A DNA stretch of 39,181 nucleotides, taken from contig JABARV010000022.1 in NCBI GenBank assembly GCA_019186965.1, forward strand, positions 1 to 39,181, written 5' to 3'. Position numbers and translations under genes: made by a program. The stretch comes from Turneriella sp. (GTDB taxonomy: Bacteria > Spirochaetota > Leptospiria > Turneriellales > Turneriellaceae). How positions within the stretch are numbered: position 1 is the first letter of the stretch; every line of letters starts with the position of its first letter. This document shows positions 11,846 to 17,207 of this stretch, in pieces. Under the pieces are notes generated by a model. It saw only the letters and a program-made list of their open reading frames with translations. It had not been told where the DNA came from and did not search any database.

Positions 11846-12850
11846 ATGGAAAAGAATAATAGGTGGATTTATACCGCAATAGCGGCAATCCTCATTGTGG
11901 GTGTCCTCCCACTCGTCTCAATTGATACAAATGCAAGAAGGAAAAGTATTCAAGATCGTTTTAACAAAATTAAAGCGCAAAACGATGCGAAGCTTGAAAA
12001 ACTACGTCAAGAAGTCAACGATATGAACGCCGAAATCAAACGGCGTAGCTTATCGTTTCAGGTTGAAATCAACGAAAAAATGAAAGAGAAAATGGCGGAT
12101 ATCACGGGGTTAAGGCCGCCTAAACCACCTAAACCAAACCCTAAACCTGCGCCTGAACCTAAACCTGCACCACCGCCGCCTGTGCCCGATGAAGATAAAC
12201 GCAGCCAATGCGACCCCAGCGCAGAAGCATTCGATTGGCGTGCCTACGGAGTTGTACCTGCAATTCGTGACCAAAAAACATGCGGGGATTGCTATATGTT
12301 CGCTGCGATGGCCTCGTACGAAACAGCGCTAAAAATCCGTAACAACCACGAAGCCGATATGGCCGAGCAGTATTTCTTAAACTGTACCAGAGAGTTTGGT
12401 TGCGACGGGGGTTGGTATGGTACGGTTTGGACAAAAATGACTAAAATGAATGGGGATATCGAAACAAATTATCCATACCAAGCCAAAAAAGGAATGTGTA
12501 AAAATGTTACTCCTAATGGAAACTATCTCGTTATGAAATCGGGGTATGTTTCGCAAAACCTTGCCTCGCCACAGGCAATAAAAAATGCGCTATGCGAACA
12601 CGGTGTGCTTGCGACTGCAGTTAATGCAACGCGGATGTTTACCGCATATAAAAAAGGTATTTTTAATGAAGGCGCAAACTCAGGTGGTGTAAACCACGCT
12701 GTCAATATCGTTGGTTGGGATAACTCCAAACGCGCATGGCTCATCCGTAACTCGTGGGGCACCGGTTGGGGCGACCAAGGGTATGCATGGGTTGAGTGGG
12801 GCTCGAACCTCATCGGCTATGGTACGATGTGGGTCGAACCAGTGAAATAA
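11846..12850 (+). CDS. membrane-anchored papain-family (C1) cysteine protease
   Basis: This 334-residue protein has four parts: a short basic start and one membrane segment (about residues 8-25), a charged coiled coil (about 30-85), a Pro/Lys linker rich in PKP and PAP repeats (90-114), and a papain domain (about 125-334). The catalytic set is complete: Gln143 (RDQKTCGDCY), Cys149, His284 (GVNHAVNIVGW) and Asn302 (IRNSWGTGWGDQGY). The CDGG motif near residue 186 is also typical. There is no recognisable inhibitory I29 propeptide; the coiled coil and linker take its place. The signal-anchor topology puts the protease on the periplasmic or outer face. The ribosome binding site is weak. Substrates are unknown; turnover of envelope proteins or secretion toward a host or prey are inferences. 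Confidence 0.88.
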   Translation: MEKNNRWIYTAIAAILIVGVLPLVSIDTNARRKSIQDRFNKIKAQNDAKLEKLRQEVNDMNAEIKRRSLSFQVEINEKMKEKMADITGLRPPKPPKPNPKPAPEPKPAPPPPVPDEDKRSQCDPSAEAFDWRAYGVVPAIRDQKTCGDCYMFAAMASYETALKIRNNHEADMAEQYFLNCTREFGCDGGWYGTVWTKMTKMNGDIETNYPYQAKKGMCKNVTPNGNYLVMKSGYVSQNLASPQAIKNALCEHGVLATAVNATRMFTAYKKGIFNEGANSGGVNHAVNIVGWDNSKRAWLIRNSWGTGWGDQGYAWVEWGSNLIGYGTMWVEPVK

Positions 12851-12856
12851 AAATTG

Positions 12857-14290
12857 TTACAGATAGCGAATTTGTAACAGAGTCAAATCGTCTTCTAACG
12901 GAATTTTGCCACGAAAAGTGTGGAGTTCTGTTAGAAGACGTTCCTCGCGTTGCTCTAAAGATAGCACAAGCGAAGCGTTCAAGACTTCGCTTAATTTATT
13001 CTCTTGAAACTCTTCGCCATTTTCGTTCGTTGTTTCCAGAAGGCCGTCGGTATAGAAGAGTAGCGTGTCGCCATGTTCTAGCGTGATTGTCTTCGGATTG
13101 AAAACACTGTCGGTGACGACTCCTAAAAGTCGCCCGGGTACCGTTAACGAATTTACACAGTTTTTTTGTAAATGAAAAATAGAGGGATGCCCTGCGTTGA
13201 TGATCGTCGTTTCACCGGTTAAAAAATGTATTTCAACAAAAACCGCGCTAATAAAAATTCCATTTGCGGAGTAACGTAAAATCTCAGCGTTTAAGTATTG
13301 CGCTGCGTCGATTAAACTGTGTTTGGAATCTTTCCAAAAATCGCGGAGAATGAGCGAAGCCATTGCAGAGAAAAAGCCGGCTGAAACTCCATGGCCGCTC
13401 ACGTCGCCGAGAATGATACGCCATGAGTTTGGTGTTTTTACGAAATCATAAAAATCACCACCCACTTTGTCGACGCTTTGATAAAAAATGCGAGAATCTA
13501 AAAAATGGTCGCGGGGGAGTACAGAAGGTAAAAGTTTTCGATGCAGTACGCGTGTGAAATCTAAATCGCGTTCAATAGTTTCATTGCGTTCGCGCAATTC
13601 TGTTTCGCGGAGGATAATTTTTTCGGTGAGTGCTTCGAGCCGCCAAGCACGGTTGCGCAATAAAATCCAAGCGTACGCAATCACCGAAAGCATGAGTGCA
13701 AAACTGCCCAATGCAGGCGATTGCTTAAAGCCCAAAATTGGGGCGACGGATAAACTTAAAAGAGCAAATGATATACTCGATATATAAATCCACAGTATAC
13801 TTTTGGCTAAAGGTAAAATTTCTTTTTGTTCGTTTGTTGGTGAGCGGATTGTTTTTATGAGCTTAAAGGTTGCCCAAAAAATGGGTGTCGCGATATAGAT
13901 AACGTAAAGAATATACATCGGTTGTCGGGTGTATAGGCGTTCAACACGGTGCTCGCCAACCCATGTAGTTTGTTTGAGTATCTCGTAAGCAGAGGGCGTG
14001 AGTAATTCGTAGAGAGTATAAAGTGTAAAAACAAGCCCAAAAATAAAATATCCGTATTCTATACGTTCCATGAGTTTTCTTGAGCCGATGACGGCTTTAA
14101 TAAAAAGATGGAATGTAAAACCCAAGTAGCATAAAATGGGCATAAGGAGGATAATAAACTGCGCCTCCCAAACACGAAACGAAATGGTGAGAATACTAAT
14201 GATGGCAAAGTAGGCAATGACTAAAAGGAGCAACGTAAATGCTCGGTTGATGTTTGCTTTGCGGTTGAGAAAATAAAAGAGAACGGCCAA
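12857..14290 (-). CDS. membrane-bound SpoIIE/RsbU-type PP2C phosphatase (start probably displaced by a frameshift)
   Basis: The N-terminal half has about seven hydrophobic segments (7TM-type sensor), followed by a short coiled coil (LTEKIILRETELRERNE) and a SpoIIE-type PP2C domain. The phosphatase motifs GGDFYDF, ILGDVSGHGVSAGFFSAM, INAGHPS and LLFYTDGLLETTN are all present, so the catalytic part looks active. Such proteins dephosphorylate anti-anti-sigma factors in partner-switching pathways, which are abundant in Leptospira-like spirochaetes. No anti-sigma partner is adjacent. The only in-frame start is a TTG at 14290 with no ribosome binding site, placed inside what reads as the first membrane helix; see the entry at 14291-14384 for the likely true start. 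Confidence 0.85.
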   Translation of the reverse strand: MAVLFYFLNRKANINRAFTLLLLVIAYFAIISILTISFRVWEAQFIILLMPILCYLGFTFHLFIKAVIGSRKLMERIEYGYFIFGLVFTLYTLYELLTPSAYEILKQTTWVGEHRVERLYTRQPMYILYVIYIATPIFWATFKLIKTIRSPTNEQKEILPLAKSILWIYISSISFALLSLSVAPILGFKQSPALGSFALMLSVIAYAWILLRNRAWRLEALTEKIILRETELRERNETIERDLDFTRVLHRKLLPSVLPRDHFLDSRIFYQSVDKVGGDFYDFVKTPNSWRIILGDVSGHGVSAGFFSAMASLILRDFWKDSKHSLIDAAQYLNAEILRYSANGIFISAVFVEIHFLTGETTIINAGHPSIFHLQKNCVNSLTVPGRLLGVVTDSVFNPKTITLEHGDTLLFYTDGLLETTNENGEEFQENKLSEVLNASLVLSLEQREERLLTELHTFRGKIPLEDDLTLLQIRYL

Positions 14291-14384
14291 AACAATAAGG
14301 AGTGTTGTAAAAAGAATCCAGAGTAAATCTATCCAAAGAAACGTGATGGGGCTGTGGAAGGTGGTTGTAGATGCTGGAGGTCAT
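14291..14384 (-). other. frameshifted 5' end of the PP2C phosphatase gene
   Basis: An ATG at 14382-14384 (minus strand) has AAAGGA ideally placed in front of it and reads MTSSIYNHLPQP. The phosphatase frame is open upstream of its TTG and reads TFLWIDLLWILFTTLLIVLA, a perfect first membrane helix, but contains no start codon before a TGA. Removing one base from the GGGG run at 14348-14351 joins the two pieces into one protein of about 508 residues. This is either a real inactivating or phase-varying mutation, or a sequencing error in the homopolymer. Confidence 0.7.
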
Positions 14385-14411
14385 AGTTTCCTTTAAGCGG
14401 CAAGCTGTCTT

Positions 14412-14468
14412 TTATTGCAACACATCAAAGCCCATGACACGAAAATCGTTATCGAATGTAAAGATAAT
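14412..14468 (-). pseudogene. C-terminal remnant of a PIN-domain (VapC) toxin
   Basis: On the minus strand this stretch reads IIFTFDNDFRVMGFDVLQ and then stop, the typical last strand and helix of a PIN toxin (TFDxDF). It lies directly downstream of, and overlaps in another frame, the end of an intact-looking antitoxin gene. A deletion has apparently removed about 110 codons of toxin from just after the antitoxin's conserved YLY to the TFDNDF region. The antitoxin is left orphaned. Confidence 0.7.
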
Positions 14469-14670
14469 TATTATGATTCTTACTCAAATCACTCTCTACT
14501 TGGCCTATATAAAAATCTGTGTCGCTAAAAAAAGGGGCTTCATTTTTAGTTGCAAGCTTCTCTTCAAGAGACTCTCGAATCAGTTCGCCTAAAGATATAG
14601 AAGGAGACGCGGCTAACTTTTCGGCTTTAAGTTTTAGGTGATCGGGAAGCATAATTGCAGTACGCATCAT
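14449..14670 (-). CDS. orphan ribbon-helix-helix (CopG/VapB-like) antitoxin
   Basis: This 73-residue protein begins MMRTAIMLPDHLKLKAEKLA and continues SISLGELIRESLEEKL, a ribbon-helix-helix DNA-binding domain. Its C-terminal half (PFFSDTDFYIGQVESDLSKNHNNYLY) resembles the toxin-binding tail of CopG-type antitoxins that are paired with PIN toxins. The expected toxin gene is reduced to its final codons (14412-14468), so the protein can no longer neutralise its own partner but may still bind its operator or cross-neutralise a related toxin. Two ATG codons (14670 and 14667) lie inside the palindromic operator. Confidence 0.75.
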   Translation of the reverse strand: MMRTAIMLPDHLKLKAEKLAASPSISLGELIRESLEEKLATKNEAPFFSDTDFYIGQVESDLSKNHNNYLYIR

Positions 14671-14698
14671 AGATATAATGTATGTTATACCTATGATG
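14665..14698. promoter_or_regulatory. palindromic operator of the orphan antitoxin
   Basis: CATCATAG at 14665-14672 and CTATGATG at 14691-14698 are perfect 8-base inverted copies, with an inner TATAA/TTATA pair between them. One arm contains the antitoxin start codon. This is the arrangement expected for an autorepressed ribbon-helix-helix antitoxin. Confidence 0.6.
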
Positions 14699-14717
14699 TG
14701 TCAAGAATTACCGCAAG

Positions 14718-15113
14718 TTATTTGTATTGCCATTTATAGAGTCGGACTAAATTCAATTTCTCCATAAATTGAAAATCAGAATCAAAACTCCAGATAGTAG
14801 CCTTTGCCTCGCGGGCTAAAGCGGCAATTAGTAAATCAGCAAAAGCAAATGTGTACCCTTTTTGTCGAGCAATATGAATCATTTCTGTAATCATTTCACA
14901 ACTTTTTTGTGACGGATAGTGTTGAGGTAAGGCTTGCAGTAAAGGCACTAAACGCGCCGCGTCTGTTTTGTTTGCACCGATTAACAATTCTGCAAAAACT
15001 GGATAGGCAAGTGCTACATTATCATCATCCAGTAAACGGATCACTTCATTTTTGCACGCATGAGGCTTGGGGCGAAAGAAATCTATCCAAACCGAAGTGT
15101 CGATGAATACCAA
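14718..15113 (-). CDS. vapC: PIN-domain ribonuclease toxin (VapC)
   Basis: VapC toxins are PIN-domain endoribonucleases that cut tRNA or rRNA and stop growth. The 131-residue protein keeps the acidic catalytic set: Asp5 (MVFIDTSVWIDFF), Glu42 (FAELLIGA), Asp93 (FADLLIAALA) and Asp111/Asp113 (WSFDSDFQ). It starts with TTG two bases after the vapB stop codon, so translation is coupled to the antitoxin. It appears intact and should be active unless neutralised. The target RNA cannot be read from the sequence. Confidence 0.88.
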   Translation of the reverse strand: MVFIDTSVWIDFFRPKPHACKNEVIRLLDDDNVALAYPVFAELLIGANKTDAARLVPLLQALPQHYPSQKSCEMITEMIHIARQKGYTFAFADLLIAALAREAKATIWSFDSDFQFMEKLNLVRLYKWQYK

Positions 15114-15115
15114 AA

Positions 15116-15310
15116 TTATTTACGTTCCCGTGATTTTTTTATATCAATTTTTAAGTCGATTTTACCTGCCAAAGATTTCAATTCGTCTATCTTTTTACGA
15201 CGAATCATTTCAGTTAGAGAATAGATAACCGTATCTGTTTTTGATTTAAAACCCAACATTTTTTGTGCTTCGGCTAAGGTTTCAGCCGGTATATCTAAAG
15301 TTGTACGCAT
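15116..15310 (-). CDS. vapB: VapB antitoxin
   Basis: This 64-residue antitoxin reads MRTTLDIPAETLAEAQKMLG then SKTDTVIYSLTEMIRRKKIDELKSLAGKIDL, a ribbon-helix-helix domain followed by the helix and GKIDL tail that wrap the VapC active site. The frame is open for a further 36 codons upstream, but MRTTLD is the conserved beginning, so the ATG at 15310 is used. It precedes vapC by two bases. Confidence 0.85.
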   Translation of the reverse strand: MRTTLDIPAETLAEAQKMLGFKSKTDTVIYSLTEMIRRKKIDELKSLAGKIDLKIDIKKSRERK

Positions 15311-15368
15311 ACAAAAAGCATAAATATATATGTAATGAGTCGTCAATATAAATAAAAATTGTGCATAT

Positions 15369-15455
15369 ATGCAAAAGATGATGAAGGGTTTTGTGACTTT
15401 CGGTGATGCAGAAGGCAAAAATCACTCGCAATACCATTGGCATTTACAAGAGTAG
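15369..15455 (+). CDS. possible 28-residue peptide, unrecognised
   Basis: An ATG inside the perfect palindrome GCATATATGC (15363-15372) opens a short frame beginning MQKMMKGFVTFGDAEGKNHS. It ends four bases ahead of the next gene. Nothing identifies it. It could be a leader peptide or the end of a decayed gene, or chance. Confidence 0.15.
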   Translation: MQKMMKGFVTFGDAEGKNHSQYHWHLQE

Positions 15456-15458
15456 CCC

Positions 15459-15647
15459 ATGCGTAATATGCCTGTGCGTGTCTTTCGCTCGTTTGAAGAA
15501 GAAGAAAAAGCCAACCGTGAATACGACCGGTCGCTCACGCCCGATGAGCGGTTTGCCATTGCTCATGAAATCATCAAGCATGTTCACGGCGATTTATCGA
15601 AATGCCCTGACGTGAGAGAGTACCACCGCATGAGGGGCGATGTCTGA
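15459..15647 (+). CDS. small partner protein of a nucleotidyltransferase module
   Basis: A 62-residue acidic protein containing VRVFRSFEEEEKANREYDRS and LTPDERFAIAHEII. Small proteins of this pattern (SFEEA-KA-REY, SLTPEER) are commonly encoded directly ahead of AbiEii/DUF6036-like nucleotidyltransferases. Here it overlaps the next gene by 8 bases. It may be the antitoxin half of a toxin-antitoxin-like pair, but this is inferred from arrangement only. An internal ATG three codons in (MPVRVF) could be the actual start. Confidence 0.65.
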   Translation: MRNMPVRVFRSFEEEEKANREYDRSLTPDERFAIAHEIIKHVHGDLSKCPDVREYHRMRGDV

Positions 15648-16110
15648 TCTTGGTTTCAGCAAAGACATTCGCGAGTTCATAGAGCTCTTGGCAAAGTATA
15701 GAGTGCGGTACTTACTCGTGGGAGGTAATGCCGTTATTTTTCACGGTTATGCTCGATACACTGGTGATGTCGATTTTTTTTATGCAATGGATGACGCTAA
15801 TACAAAGAAACTTTTTACTGCTCTTCAAGAGTACTGGGGTGGTAATGTACCTTTTGTCGCAAGGGAAACCGACCTTCGTGTCGAAGGTCAAATTATCCAG
15901 TTTGGTGTACCGCCTTTTCGTATTGACCTGATTAACAGAATCGATGGAGTTACTTTTGAAGAGGCCTATGCCACTGCAATTTCAGAAACCATTCCACACG
16001 GCAAAGAAGTGCTCCCTATTAAAATTATTTCTCTTGATATGTTGAAAAAAAACAAAATCGCCAGTGCTCGCATTAAAGATATTGAAGATGTACAAAAATT
16101 GAAAGGATGA
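15640..16110 (+). CDS. nucleotidyltransferase-fold protein (AbiEii/DUF6036-like)
   Basis: This 156-residue protein reads VRYLLVGGNAVIFHGYARYT followed by GDVDFF, the GG...DxD signature of the DNA polymerase beta-like nucleotidyltransferase fold, with the aspartates at residues 43 and 45. The rest (FGVPPFRIDLINRIDGVTFEEAY, then ISLDMLKKNKIASARIKDIEDVQ) matches stand-alone minimal nucleotidyltransferases related to AbiEii-type toxins. The usual Lys and Arg/Lys helix (MLKKNKIASARIKDIED) is present. It overlaps its small upstream partner by 8 bases and sits among VapBC systems. A toxin that modifies tRNA ends is possible but not shown. Confidence 0.75.
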   Translation: MSDLGFSKDIREFIELLAKYRVRYLLVGGNAVIFHGYARYTGDVDFFYAMDDANTKKLFTALQEYWGGNVPFVARETDLRVEGQIIQFGVPPFRIDLINRIDGVTFEEAYATAISETIPHGKEVLPIKIISLDMLKKNKIASARIKDIEDVQKLKG

Positions 16111-16157
16111 ATTGATTTTTTATAGACACTCCACGAGTAATTAATTGTACTGCTACC

Positions 16158-16277
16158 ATGAGCTGGATGATGATTGCCGGTATTTCGTTACTCGTTGGGT
16201 CTGCTATTTATTTTTTTGGTGTTGGTATTGCGGGTCTAATTGCAGATCAGGTAAAGAAAGAACTTGCTAAAAGATAA
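16158..16277 (+). CDS. 39-residue single-pass membrane peptide
   Basis: The frame reads MSWMMIAGISLLVGSAIYFF, then a further hydrophobic GVGIAGLIA and a basic tail ending KKELAKR. One membrane helix with a positive C-terminus is clear. It lies between the nucleotidyltransferase and the attC-like site. Small hydrophobic peptides of this size include type I toxins and membrane-protein regulators, but no family is recognised and the ribosome binding site is weak. Confidence 0.4.
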   Translation: MSWMMIAGISLLVGSAIYFFGVGIAGLIADQVKKELAKR

Positions 16278-16319
16278 CAAACTTCTTGTTTTCTTTGCCG
16301 CCGCACGACGCTGCTTTCA

Positions 16320-16472
16320 GGGCATAACAGCGGCTGCACCCCGCTTTTACTTTAGATACGACTGAGGCTGACGCGAACTTTGCGAAAAGACACGAATGTG
16401 TCCTTCGAAGGGTAAGTTTAAGCGGTTTGGGCAATTCAACGCAAGAAAATCAACGTTGTCGCTGTTAGACCC
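16320..16472 (+). other. attC-like recombination site (integron cassette end)
   Basis: The ends are near-perfect inverted copies: GGGCATAACAGCG at 16320-16332 and CGCTGTTAGACCC at 16460-16472 (11 of 13 pair). The right end contains GTTAGAC, which fits the integron core site GTTRRRY; the left end GCATAAC is one base off RYYYAAC. GCTGCA follows the left core, as in many attC sites, and CCGCTTTTACTT pairs with AAGTTTAAGCGG further in. Length (153 bp) and the gene-then-site order suit a cassette attC. Only one copy and no integrase are seen. Confidence 0.45.
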
Positions 16473-16520
16473 TGTTTACGGCAAGCAGGTTGTGGCGGTT
16501 TTGGAAAAATAGTTGACCAA

Positions 16521-16552
16521 ACATTTGTAATACATAGAAGTATGACAAATGT
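16521..16552. promoter_or_regulatory. palindromic operator of the second vapBC-like operon
   Basis: ACATTTGT (16521-16528) and ACAAATGT (16545-16552) are perfect inverted copies, with inner CATA/TATG also paired. The antitoxin start codon at 16549 lies in the right arm. TTGACC at 16513 could be a -35 element. The layout fits autorepression by the ribbon-helix-helix antitoxin. Confidence 0.6.
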
Positions 16553-16803
16553 ATAGTTTACGACTCCCGAAAAATCTTGAGCACGAACTGGAAAAAATGG
16601 CAAAAATAGAAAGTAAATCTAAAGCGCAGATCATAAAAGACGCTTTAGGAAATTATTTAGCCGCAAAAACAAGCAAACCTACTGCGTACGAGCTGGGCAA
16701 GGAGTATATCGGCAAATATGCTTCGGGCCAATCTGACCGTTCCACTTCTTATAAAACAATCATTGCAGATAAAATCAAGGCAAAGCATCGAAAATCCCAA
16801 TGA
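16549..16803 (+). CDS. ribbon-helix-helix antitoxin (VapB/RelB-like)
   Basis: This 84-residue protein begins MYSLRLPKNLEHELEKMAKI and continues KSKAQIIKDALGNYL, a ribbon-helix-helix DNA-binding domain, followed by a charged, probably disordered toxin-binding tail rich in Lys and Ser. Its last bases overlap the downstream PIN toxin start (ATGA). The ATG lies within a palindromic operator with AGAAG eight bases ahead as a weak ribosome binding site. It starts 77 bases after the attC-like site, as a cassette gene would. Confidence 0.8.
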   Translation: MYSLRLPKNLEHELEKMAKIESKSKAQIIKDALGNYLAAKTSKPTAYELGKEYIGKYASGQSDRSTSYKTIIADKIKAKHRKSQ

Positions 16804-17207
16804 AGGCTGCACTTATCGATACGGGGCCTTTATATTCTTTCTTTGATAGCTCCGACAAACACGCTCAAACCGTTCGCAATTTCTTGAGTAGATACAAAGG
16901 TCGATTGATAACAACCATAGCTATCGTCACCGAAGTATCTTATTTGCTCGGCGATATGAAACCCGCACAATTAGACTTCATCGAATGGATACAGAAAGGC
17001 GCAGTAGAAATAATGGACGTTGGAGTTCAAGATTTCGCAGAGATACATAAAGGCATGAAAAAATACGCAGACACTCCTATGGATTTTGCCGATGCTACTT
17101 TGGTTTTTATCGCCAACAAATTAAAAATTTTGAACATCATTACTTTAGACGACGACTTTCGAGTTTATCGGCTATCGGGTAATAAGCGTTTTATTTACCT
17201 GATCTAA
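16800..17207 (+). CDS. PIN-domain toxin (VapC-like)
   Basis: This 135-residue PIN-domain protein keeps the acidic residues Asp7 (ALIDTGPLYSFFD), Glu45 (IVTEVSYLLG), Asp95/Asp98 (PMDFADATLVFIA) and the TLDDDFRVYR end with Asp117-119. It should be a metal-dependent endoribonuclease toxin held in check by the preceding antitoxin; the four-base ATGA overlap couples the two. It belongs to a different PIN subgroup from the VapC at 14718 (longer, DTGPLYSFFD start), so the two systems are not recent duplicates. Confidence 0.85.
   Translation: MKAALIDTGPLYSFFDSSDKHAQTVRNFLSRYKGRLITTIAIVTEVSYLLGDMKPAQLDFIEWIQKGAVEIMDVGVQDFAEIHKGMKKYADTPMDFADATLVFIANKLKILNIITLDDDFRVYRLSGNKRFIYLI

What the first reader, a model, noticed from the sequence alone, without database searches (positions are those of the whole stretch)
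14288..14384. One-base frameshift separates the start codon from a signalling phosphatase
The ATG at 14384 has an excellent AAAGGA ribosome binding site but is in another frame from the PP2C gene. The PP2C frame is open upstream through a complete membrane helix that has no start codon. Deleting one base from the GGGG run at 14348-14351 rejoins them perfectly. A homopolymer there could switch the phosphatase on and off, could be a fixed loss, or could be an assembly error.
Basis: partly seen in the sequence, partly recalled or inferred. Interest (0 to 1): 0.72.

Follow-up and report, generated by a model that had tools for sequence, protein, structure and literature searches.

The report
Frameshifted start of a membrane phosphatase
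A signalling phosphatase gene in a spirochaete related to Turneriella has its start signal one base out of register with the rest of the protein, most likely through an ordinary recent mutation (or a sequence error) and not an on/off switch.

Summary
On the minus strand, AAAGGA-AACT-ATG (ATG 14384) lies one base out of frame with a SpoIIE/PP2C phosphatase (12857-14380). That frame is open upstream of its first usable start (TTG 14290) through a conserved hydrophobic helix and has no ATG, GTG or TTG there. Two same-genus orthologues (50-51% identity) and three distant homologues carry the helix in frame right behind an ordinary start codon. So the helix is ancestral and the frame break is specific to this genome.

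An on/off switch at the run of four is very unlikely. The run is ordinary (1,117 such G/C runs in 328 tested genes of this genome; none coincides with a detected frameshift), it is not conserved in the orthologues, and it is shorter than known contingency tracts. The best reading is a recent fixed one-base frame break that removes or strongly reduces the full phosphatase. A consensus error cannot be excluded: one other frameshift, at an A7 run, turned up in those genes. Leaky slipping at CCC-C or a non-ATG start could give some protein; truB in this genus seems to start at ATT.

Directly upstream, a vapBC toxin gene has been deleted down to its last codons. Ordinary; low interest.

The parts
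12857..14380 (-). SpoIIE/PP2C phosphatase reading frame, open from 14380; first ATG/GTG/TTG is TTG 14290 (477 aa from there)
   Evidence: SpoIIE PF07228 E=1.2e-38
12863..13429 (-). SpoIIE/PP2C catalytic domain, no stop inside; motifs VGGDFYD, GDVSGHG, FYTDGLLE, EDD present
13649..14314 (-). seven-helix membrane region (HisKA_7TM-like; below the Pfam cut-off here, above it in orthologue L009)
   Evidence: low-confidence model
14258..14347 (-). helix 1, conserved in orthologues; two thirds of it lies upstream of the TTG
14288..14290 (-). TTG, first usable start in the phosphatase frame, in mid-helix, no Shine-Dalgarno sequence
14348..14351 (-). CCCC run where the two frames join when aligned with orthologues
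14382..14384 (-). ATG with a Shine-Dalgarno sequence, out of frame with the phosphatase
14389..14394 (-). Shine-Dalgarno sequence AAAGGA
14196..14384 (-). 62-codon frame read from the ATG without a shift
14412..14459 (-). remnant of a vapC toxin gene: only the last 15 codons (TFDNDFRVMGFDVLQ) are left
14449..14667 (-). vapB-type antitoxin gene, its end fused into the vapC remnant
14675..14704 (-). promoter-like site just before the antitoxin; no terminator-like site between it and the phosphatase
   Evidence: consensus match only

Best explanation
This is a membrane-sensor phosphatase (seven N-terminal helices, coiled linker, SpoIIE/PP2C domain) whose coding sequence in this genome carries a recent one-base frame break between its start codon and helix 1, best placed at the CCCC run 14348-14351. 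Ribosomes load at AAAGGA-ATG 14384, read 11-12 codons and then continue in the wrong frame to a stop at 14196. Full-length phosphatase is therefore absent or made only in traces. Shown: the two frames, the ancestral helix, an intact remainder of the gene, and the absence of the break in orthologues. Inferred: that the break is a real fixed mutation rather than a consensus error, that it is recent, and that it lowers or abolishes the product.
For: Frames and signals. Orthologues with helix 1 in frame behind a normal start: L009 (ATG, MERLLLKPVTLLWID) and L010 (TTG, MHQPVNLLWID), about 50% identity over the whole length; distant homologues L011-L013 with the same arrangement. Protein-level constraint on the 20 codons before the TTG. 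The TTG has no Shine-Dalgarno sequence and cuts helix 1. Remainder of the frame intact over 477 codons with catalytic motifs, as expected for a recent break. Assembly quality: one frameshift candidate in 328 genes and 372,747 bases, not at a G/C run of four. The neighbouring upstream gene is also damaged.
Against: No reads and no second genome of the species could be consulted, so a consensus error is open. The phosphatase half shows more changes unique to this genome (43 against 28 and 20) but the membrane half does not (23 against 28 and 29), which is not the pattern of uniform decay. A non-ATG start could make the frame break irrelevant.
Confidence: 0.55

Rival explanations
1. The extra base is an assembly or consensus error and the gene is intact in the living cell.
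For: Draft assembly of 27 contigs; the rest of the gene is intact; one other frameshift, at an A7 run in a CoA-disulfide-reductase-like gene, shows that such breaks, real or not, occur in the assembly.
Against: None of 1,117 G/C runs of four or 302 longer ones in tested genes coincides with a detected frameshift (about 65% sensitivity); homopolymer lengths follow a Markov expectation up to 8.
Confidence: 0.22
2. The phosphatase is translated from a non-standard start in its own frame, for example ATC 14347, and the ATG at 14384 is irrelevant. A variant: the ancestral start was a TTG at the homologue of G002's start and was lost by substitution (TTC here).
For: truB in this genome and in G005 has no ATG/GTG/TTG and seems to start at a conserved ATT, so unusual starts occur in the genus. 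G002 starts at a TTG three codons before the shared proline, where this genome has TTC.
Against: No Shine-Dalgarno sequence before 14347, whereas one stands before 14384; ATC starts are very rare (own knowledge); the orthologues have GTC there.
Confidence: 0.12
3. The ribosome slips +1 at CCC-C often enough to make useful amounts of the phosphatase, as a regulated (programmed) frameshift.
For: CCC-C is a known +1-slippery sequence; up to 1% slip in E. coli when it is the second codon (PMC4519876). Both proline tRNAs (GGG and UGG) are present. The shifted product rejoins the frames.
Against: Here CCC-C is codon 12, less slip-prone than codon 2; no adjacent stop codon; orthologues have CCA-GTC and no frame change.
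Confidence: 0.06
4. Translation starts at TTG 14290 and gives a functional phosphatase without helix 1.
For: It is the first usable start in frame.
Against: No Shine-Dalgarno sequence, in mid-helix, and every homologue examined has the helix.
Confidence: 0.03
5. A phase-variable homopolymer switches the phosphatase on and off.
For: A run of one base at the frame joint.
Confidence: 0.02

Closest known systems
SpoIIE/RsbU-type PP2C phosphatases with an N-terminal membrane sensor (PF07228, HisKA_7TM PF16927)
   Same: domain content, order and catalytic motifs; orthologues in two other genomes of the genus
   Different: in this genome the start codon is one base out of frame with helix 1
Recent frameshift pseudogenes
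   Same: single-base frame break in an otherwise intact reading frame, relatives intact
   Different: the break lies only 11-12 codons from the start, so nearly all of the protein remains in one frame
Phase-variable contingency genes with homopolymer tracts
   Same: a run of one base at the frame joint
   Different: run of four only, not conserved, no sign of length variation
+1 slippage at CCC-C by proline tRNA
   Same: the shifty motif is present in the right phase
   Different: not conserved, far from the second codon, no stimulating element seen

Membership tests
SpoIIE/PP2C phosphatase with 7TM sensor | SpoIIE/PP2C catalytic domain with conserved acidic motifs | tested here: met
   PF07228 E=1.2e-38; motifs in the alignment
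SpoIIE/PP2C phosphatase with 7TM sensor | N-terminal seven-helix membrane region in the same reading frame | tested here: met
   frame open through all helices; PF16927 24 bits here (below cut-off 28.6), 30.4 in orthologue L009; hydropathy; structure model of low confidence
SpoIIE/PP2C phosphatase with 7TM sensor | usable start codon in frame upstream of helix 1 | tested here: not met
   no ATG/GTG/TTG between 14380 and 14291
Frameshift pseudogene | frame break absent from orthologues | tested here: met
   L009 and L010 continuous
Frameshift pseudogene | break confirmed in reads or in further strains | not testable with these tools
   no reads and no second genome of the species available
Frameshift pseudogene | relaxed constraint on the rest of the gene | tested here: inconclusive
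   phosphatase half 43 unique changes against 28 and 20; membrane half 23 against 28 and 29
Phase-variable homopolymer gene | long repeat tract, about 7 or more G/C | tested here: not met
   tract of 4; limits in PMC5084427
Phase-variable homopolymer gene | length variation within the population | not testable with these tools
   no reads
Programmed +1 frameshift gene | shift site conserved in orthologues | tested here: not met
   CCA-GTC and no frame change in both orthologues
Programmed +1 frameshift gene | efficient shift in vivo | not testable with these tools
   needs a reporter or ribosome profiling

The most novel reading that the evidence does not exclude
The phosphatase is made at a deliberately low, tunable level by +1 slipping at CCC-C (or from a non-AUG start, as truB of this genus appears to use), so that dosage depends on proline-tRNA modification or initiation stringency.
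Probability: 0.06. Interest if true: 0.6.

Novelty: new member of a known kind. Interest (0 to 1): 0.15.

Why it matters
Mainly as a caution. A short homopolymer at a frame joint is not evidence of phase variation, and annotation pipelines would call this gene from a mid-helix TTG and so misplace its topology. If a read check confirmed the sequence, it would be one lineage-specific loss among the 16 places in this genome that match the phosphatase.

Tried and rejected
A scan of genome contigs and a plasmid search gave only distant phosphatase-domain relatives. The stretch 14345-14480 has no second copy in the genome, so a fusion with a duplicated cassette is not supported. Four further genomes of the genus (G001, G003, G005, G006) lack the gene at the thresholds used; two of them are only 83-84% complete. 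A single-sequence structure prediction was of low confidence (mean pLDDT 45.8) and is used only for helix placement.

Full report
What is there. On the minus strand the window holds a phosphatase gene whose frame runs from 14380 to the stop at 12857. Its C-terminal part is a SpoIIE/PP2C domain (E=1.2e-38); its N-terminal part resembles the seven-helix region of membrane histidine kinases (24 bits, just under the Pfam cut-off; 30.4 bits, above the cut-off, in an orthologue). The first ATG, GTG or TTG in this frame is TTG 14290, in the middle of the first helix and without a Shine-Dalgarno sequence. A good start signal, AAAGGA-AACT-ATG, stands at 14394-14382, one base out of frame; read on without a shift it ends after 62 codons. 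The frames join at the CCCC run 14351-14348.

Is it more than chance? The 20 codons upstream of the TTG are conserved with orthologues at codon positions 1 and 2 far more than at position 3 (0.75, 0.85, 0.25 against G002), so they were coding in this lineage. AAAGGA-N3..9-ATG is found 9 times in both strands of the window, 3.0 expected. The position of the frame change at CCCC is less certain than the change itself, because any one-base change in the overlap would do; it rests on a Gln-Pro match with G002.

Orthologues. Two other genomes of the genus hold full-length orthologues (L009 from G004, 50%; L010 from G002, 51%). L009 starts at ATG (MERLLLKPVTLLWID) and L010 at TTG (MHQPVNLLWID), each directly before the helix and in frame. 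Homologues in G034, G031 and G044 (25-27% identity) also begin just before the helix. The neighbouring upstream genes differ in all three genomes, so the gene's setting is not conserved. Chromosome length and contig count suggest that G005 is Turneriella parva (4,384,015 bases plus a small second contig, against a total of 4,409,302 in PMC3746428), an inference; G005 lacks the orthologue.

How good is the assembly? I compared 839 kb of this genome (two long contigs and the window) with proteins from 2.0 Mb of G005. In 328 shared genes (125,323 aligned residues, 372,747 bases) there was one frameshift candidate, in a CoA-disulfide-reductase-like gene at an A7 run. In a simulation the method recovered 39 of 60 planted indels. 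The tested genes contain 1,117 G/C runs of exactly four and 302 longer ones, and none coincides with a detected frameshift. Homopolymer lengths follow a Markov expectation up to 8 in both genomes. A consensus error is possible but has no specific support.

Not a switch. A run of four is common here (2,285 G/C runs of four in 800 kb, as expected), absent from the orthologues, and shorter than tracts treated as contingency loci: a meningococcal survey ranked G/C tracts under 7 as weak and could not see C5 (PMC5084427).

Could the protein still be made? CCC-C is a known +1 slip site, up to 1% in E. coli as the second codon (PMC4519876); here it is codon 12. Both proline tRNAs are present. A non-standard start at ATC 14347 is conceivable, since truB in this genome and in G005 has no ATG/GTG/TTG and shares an ATT at the right place, but there is no Shine-Dalgarno sequence before ATC 14347. 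Neither route is supported by conservation. Unique amino-acid changes are not raised in the membrane half (23 against 28 and 29) but are somewhat raised in the phosphatase half (43 against 28 and 20; p = 0.096 and 0.005, uncorrected). That is inconclusive.

Surroundings. Directly upstream is a vapB-type antitoxin gene (14449-14667) whose end runs into the last 15 codons of a vapC toxin (14412-14459). Intact pairs in G001 and G006 show the missing part. A promoter-like site lies before the antitoxin and no terminator-like site follows, so the phosphatase may be co-transcribed with it. This neighbourhood of toxin-antitoxin genes is decaying, which fits a mutated gene but proves nothing.

Verdict. 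A real frame break relative to relatives, most likely a recent fixed mutation (0.55), possibly a consensus error (0.22), with small probabilities for other starts or slipping. Ordinary.

Noticed in passing
window 14412-14667 (-): A vapBC pair reduced by deletion: the antitoxin is nearly complete, but of the toxin only the last 15 codons remain, joined at a short TTTAC sequence. Intact homologous pairs exist in G001 and G006.
   Followed up: partly
G000:C1 about 430497 (-), and G005: truB has no ATG, GTG or TTG start in either genome; both share an ATT at the expected N-terminus, suggesting a conserved AUU start codon.
   Followed up: partly
G000:C1 about 302050-303338 (+), and G005: A transposase-like ORF of about 382 aa (IS91-like by eye) is open upstream without a start codon, while a conserved ATGCTCTCCGGAG start lies in another frame in both genomes: a candidate for frameshifting or an odd start.
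   Followed up: no
G000:C1:418519-420149 (+): CoA-disulfide-reductase-like gene broken by a frameshift at an A7 run near 418790; the only frameshift among 328 tested genes.
   Followed up: partly
window 14718-17207: Cluster of further toxin-antitoxin genes: VapB/VapC (14718-15418 -), a DUF6036 protein (15640-16110 +) and an RHH/PIN pair (16549-17207 +).
   Followed up: no
window 11846-12850 (+): Papain-family cysteine protease gene that converges on the phosphatase gene, stops 6 bases apart.
   Followed up: no
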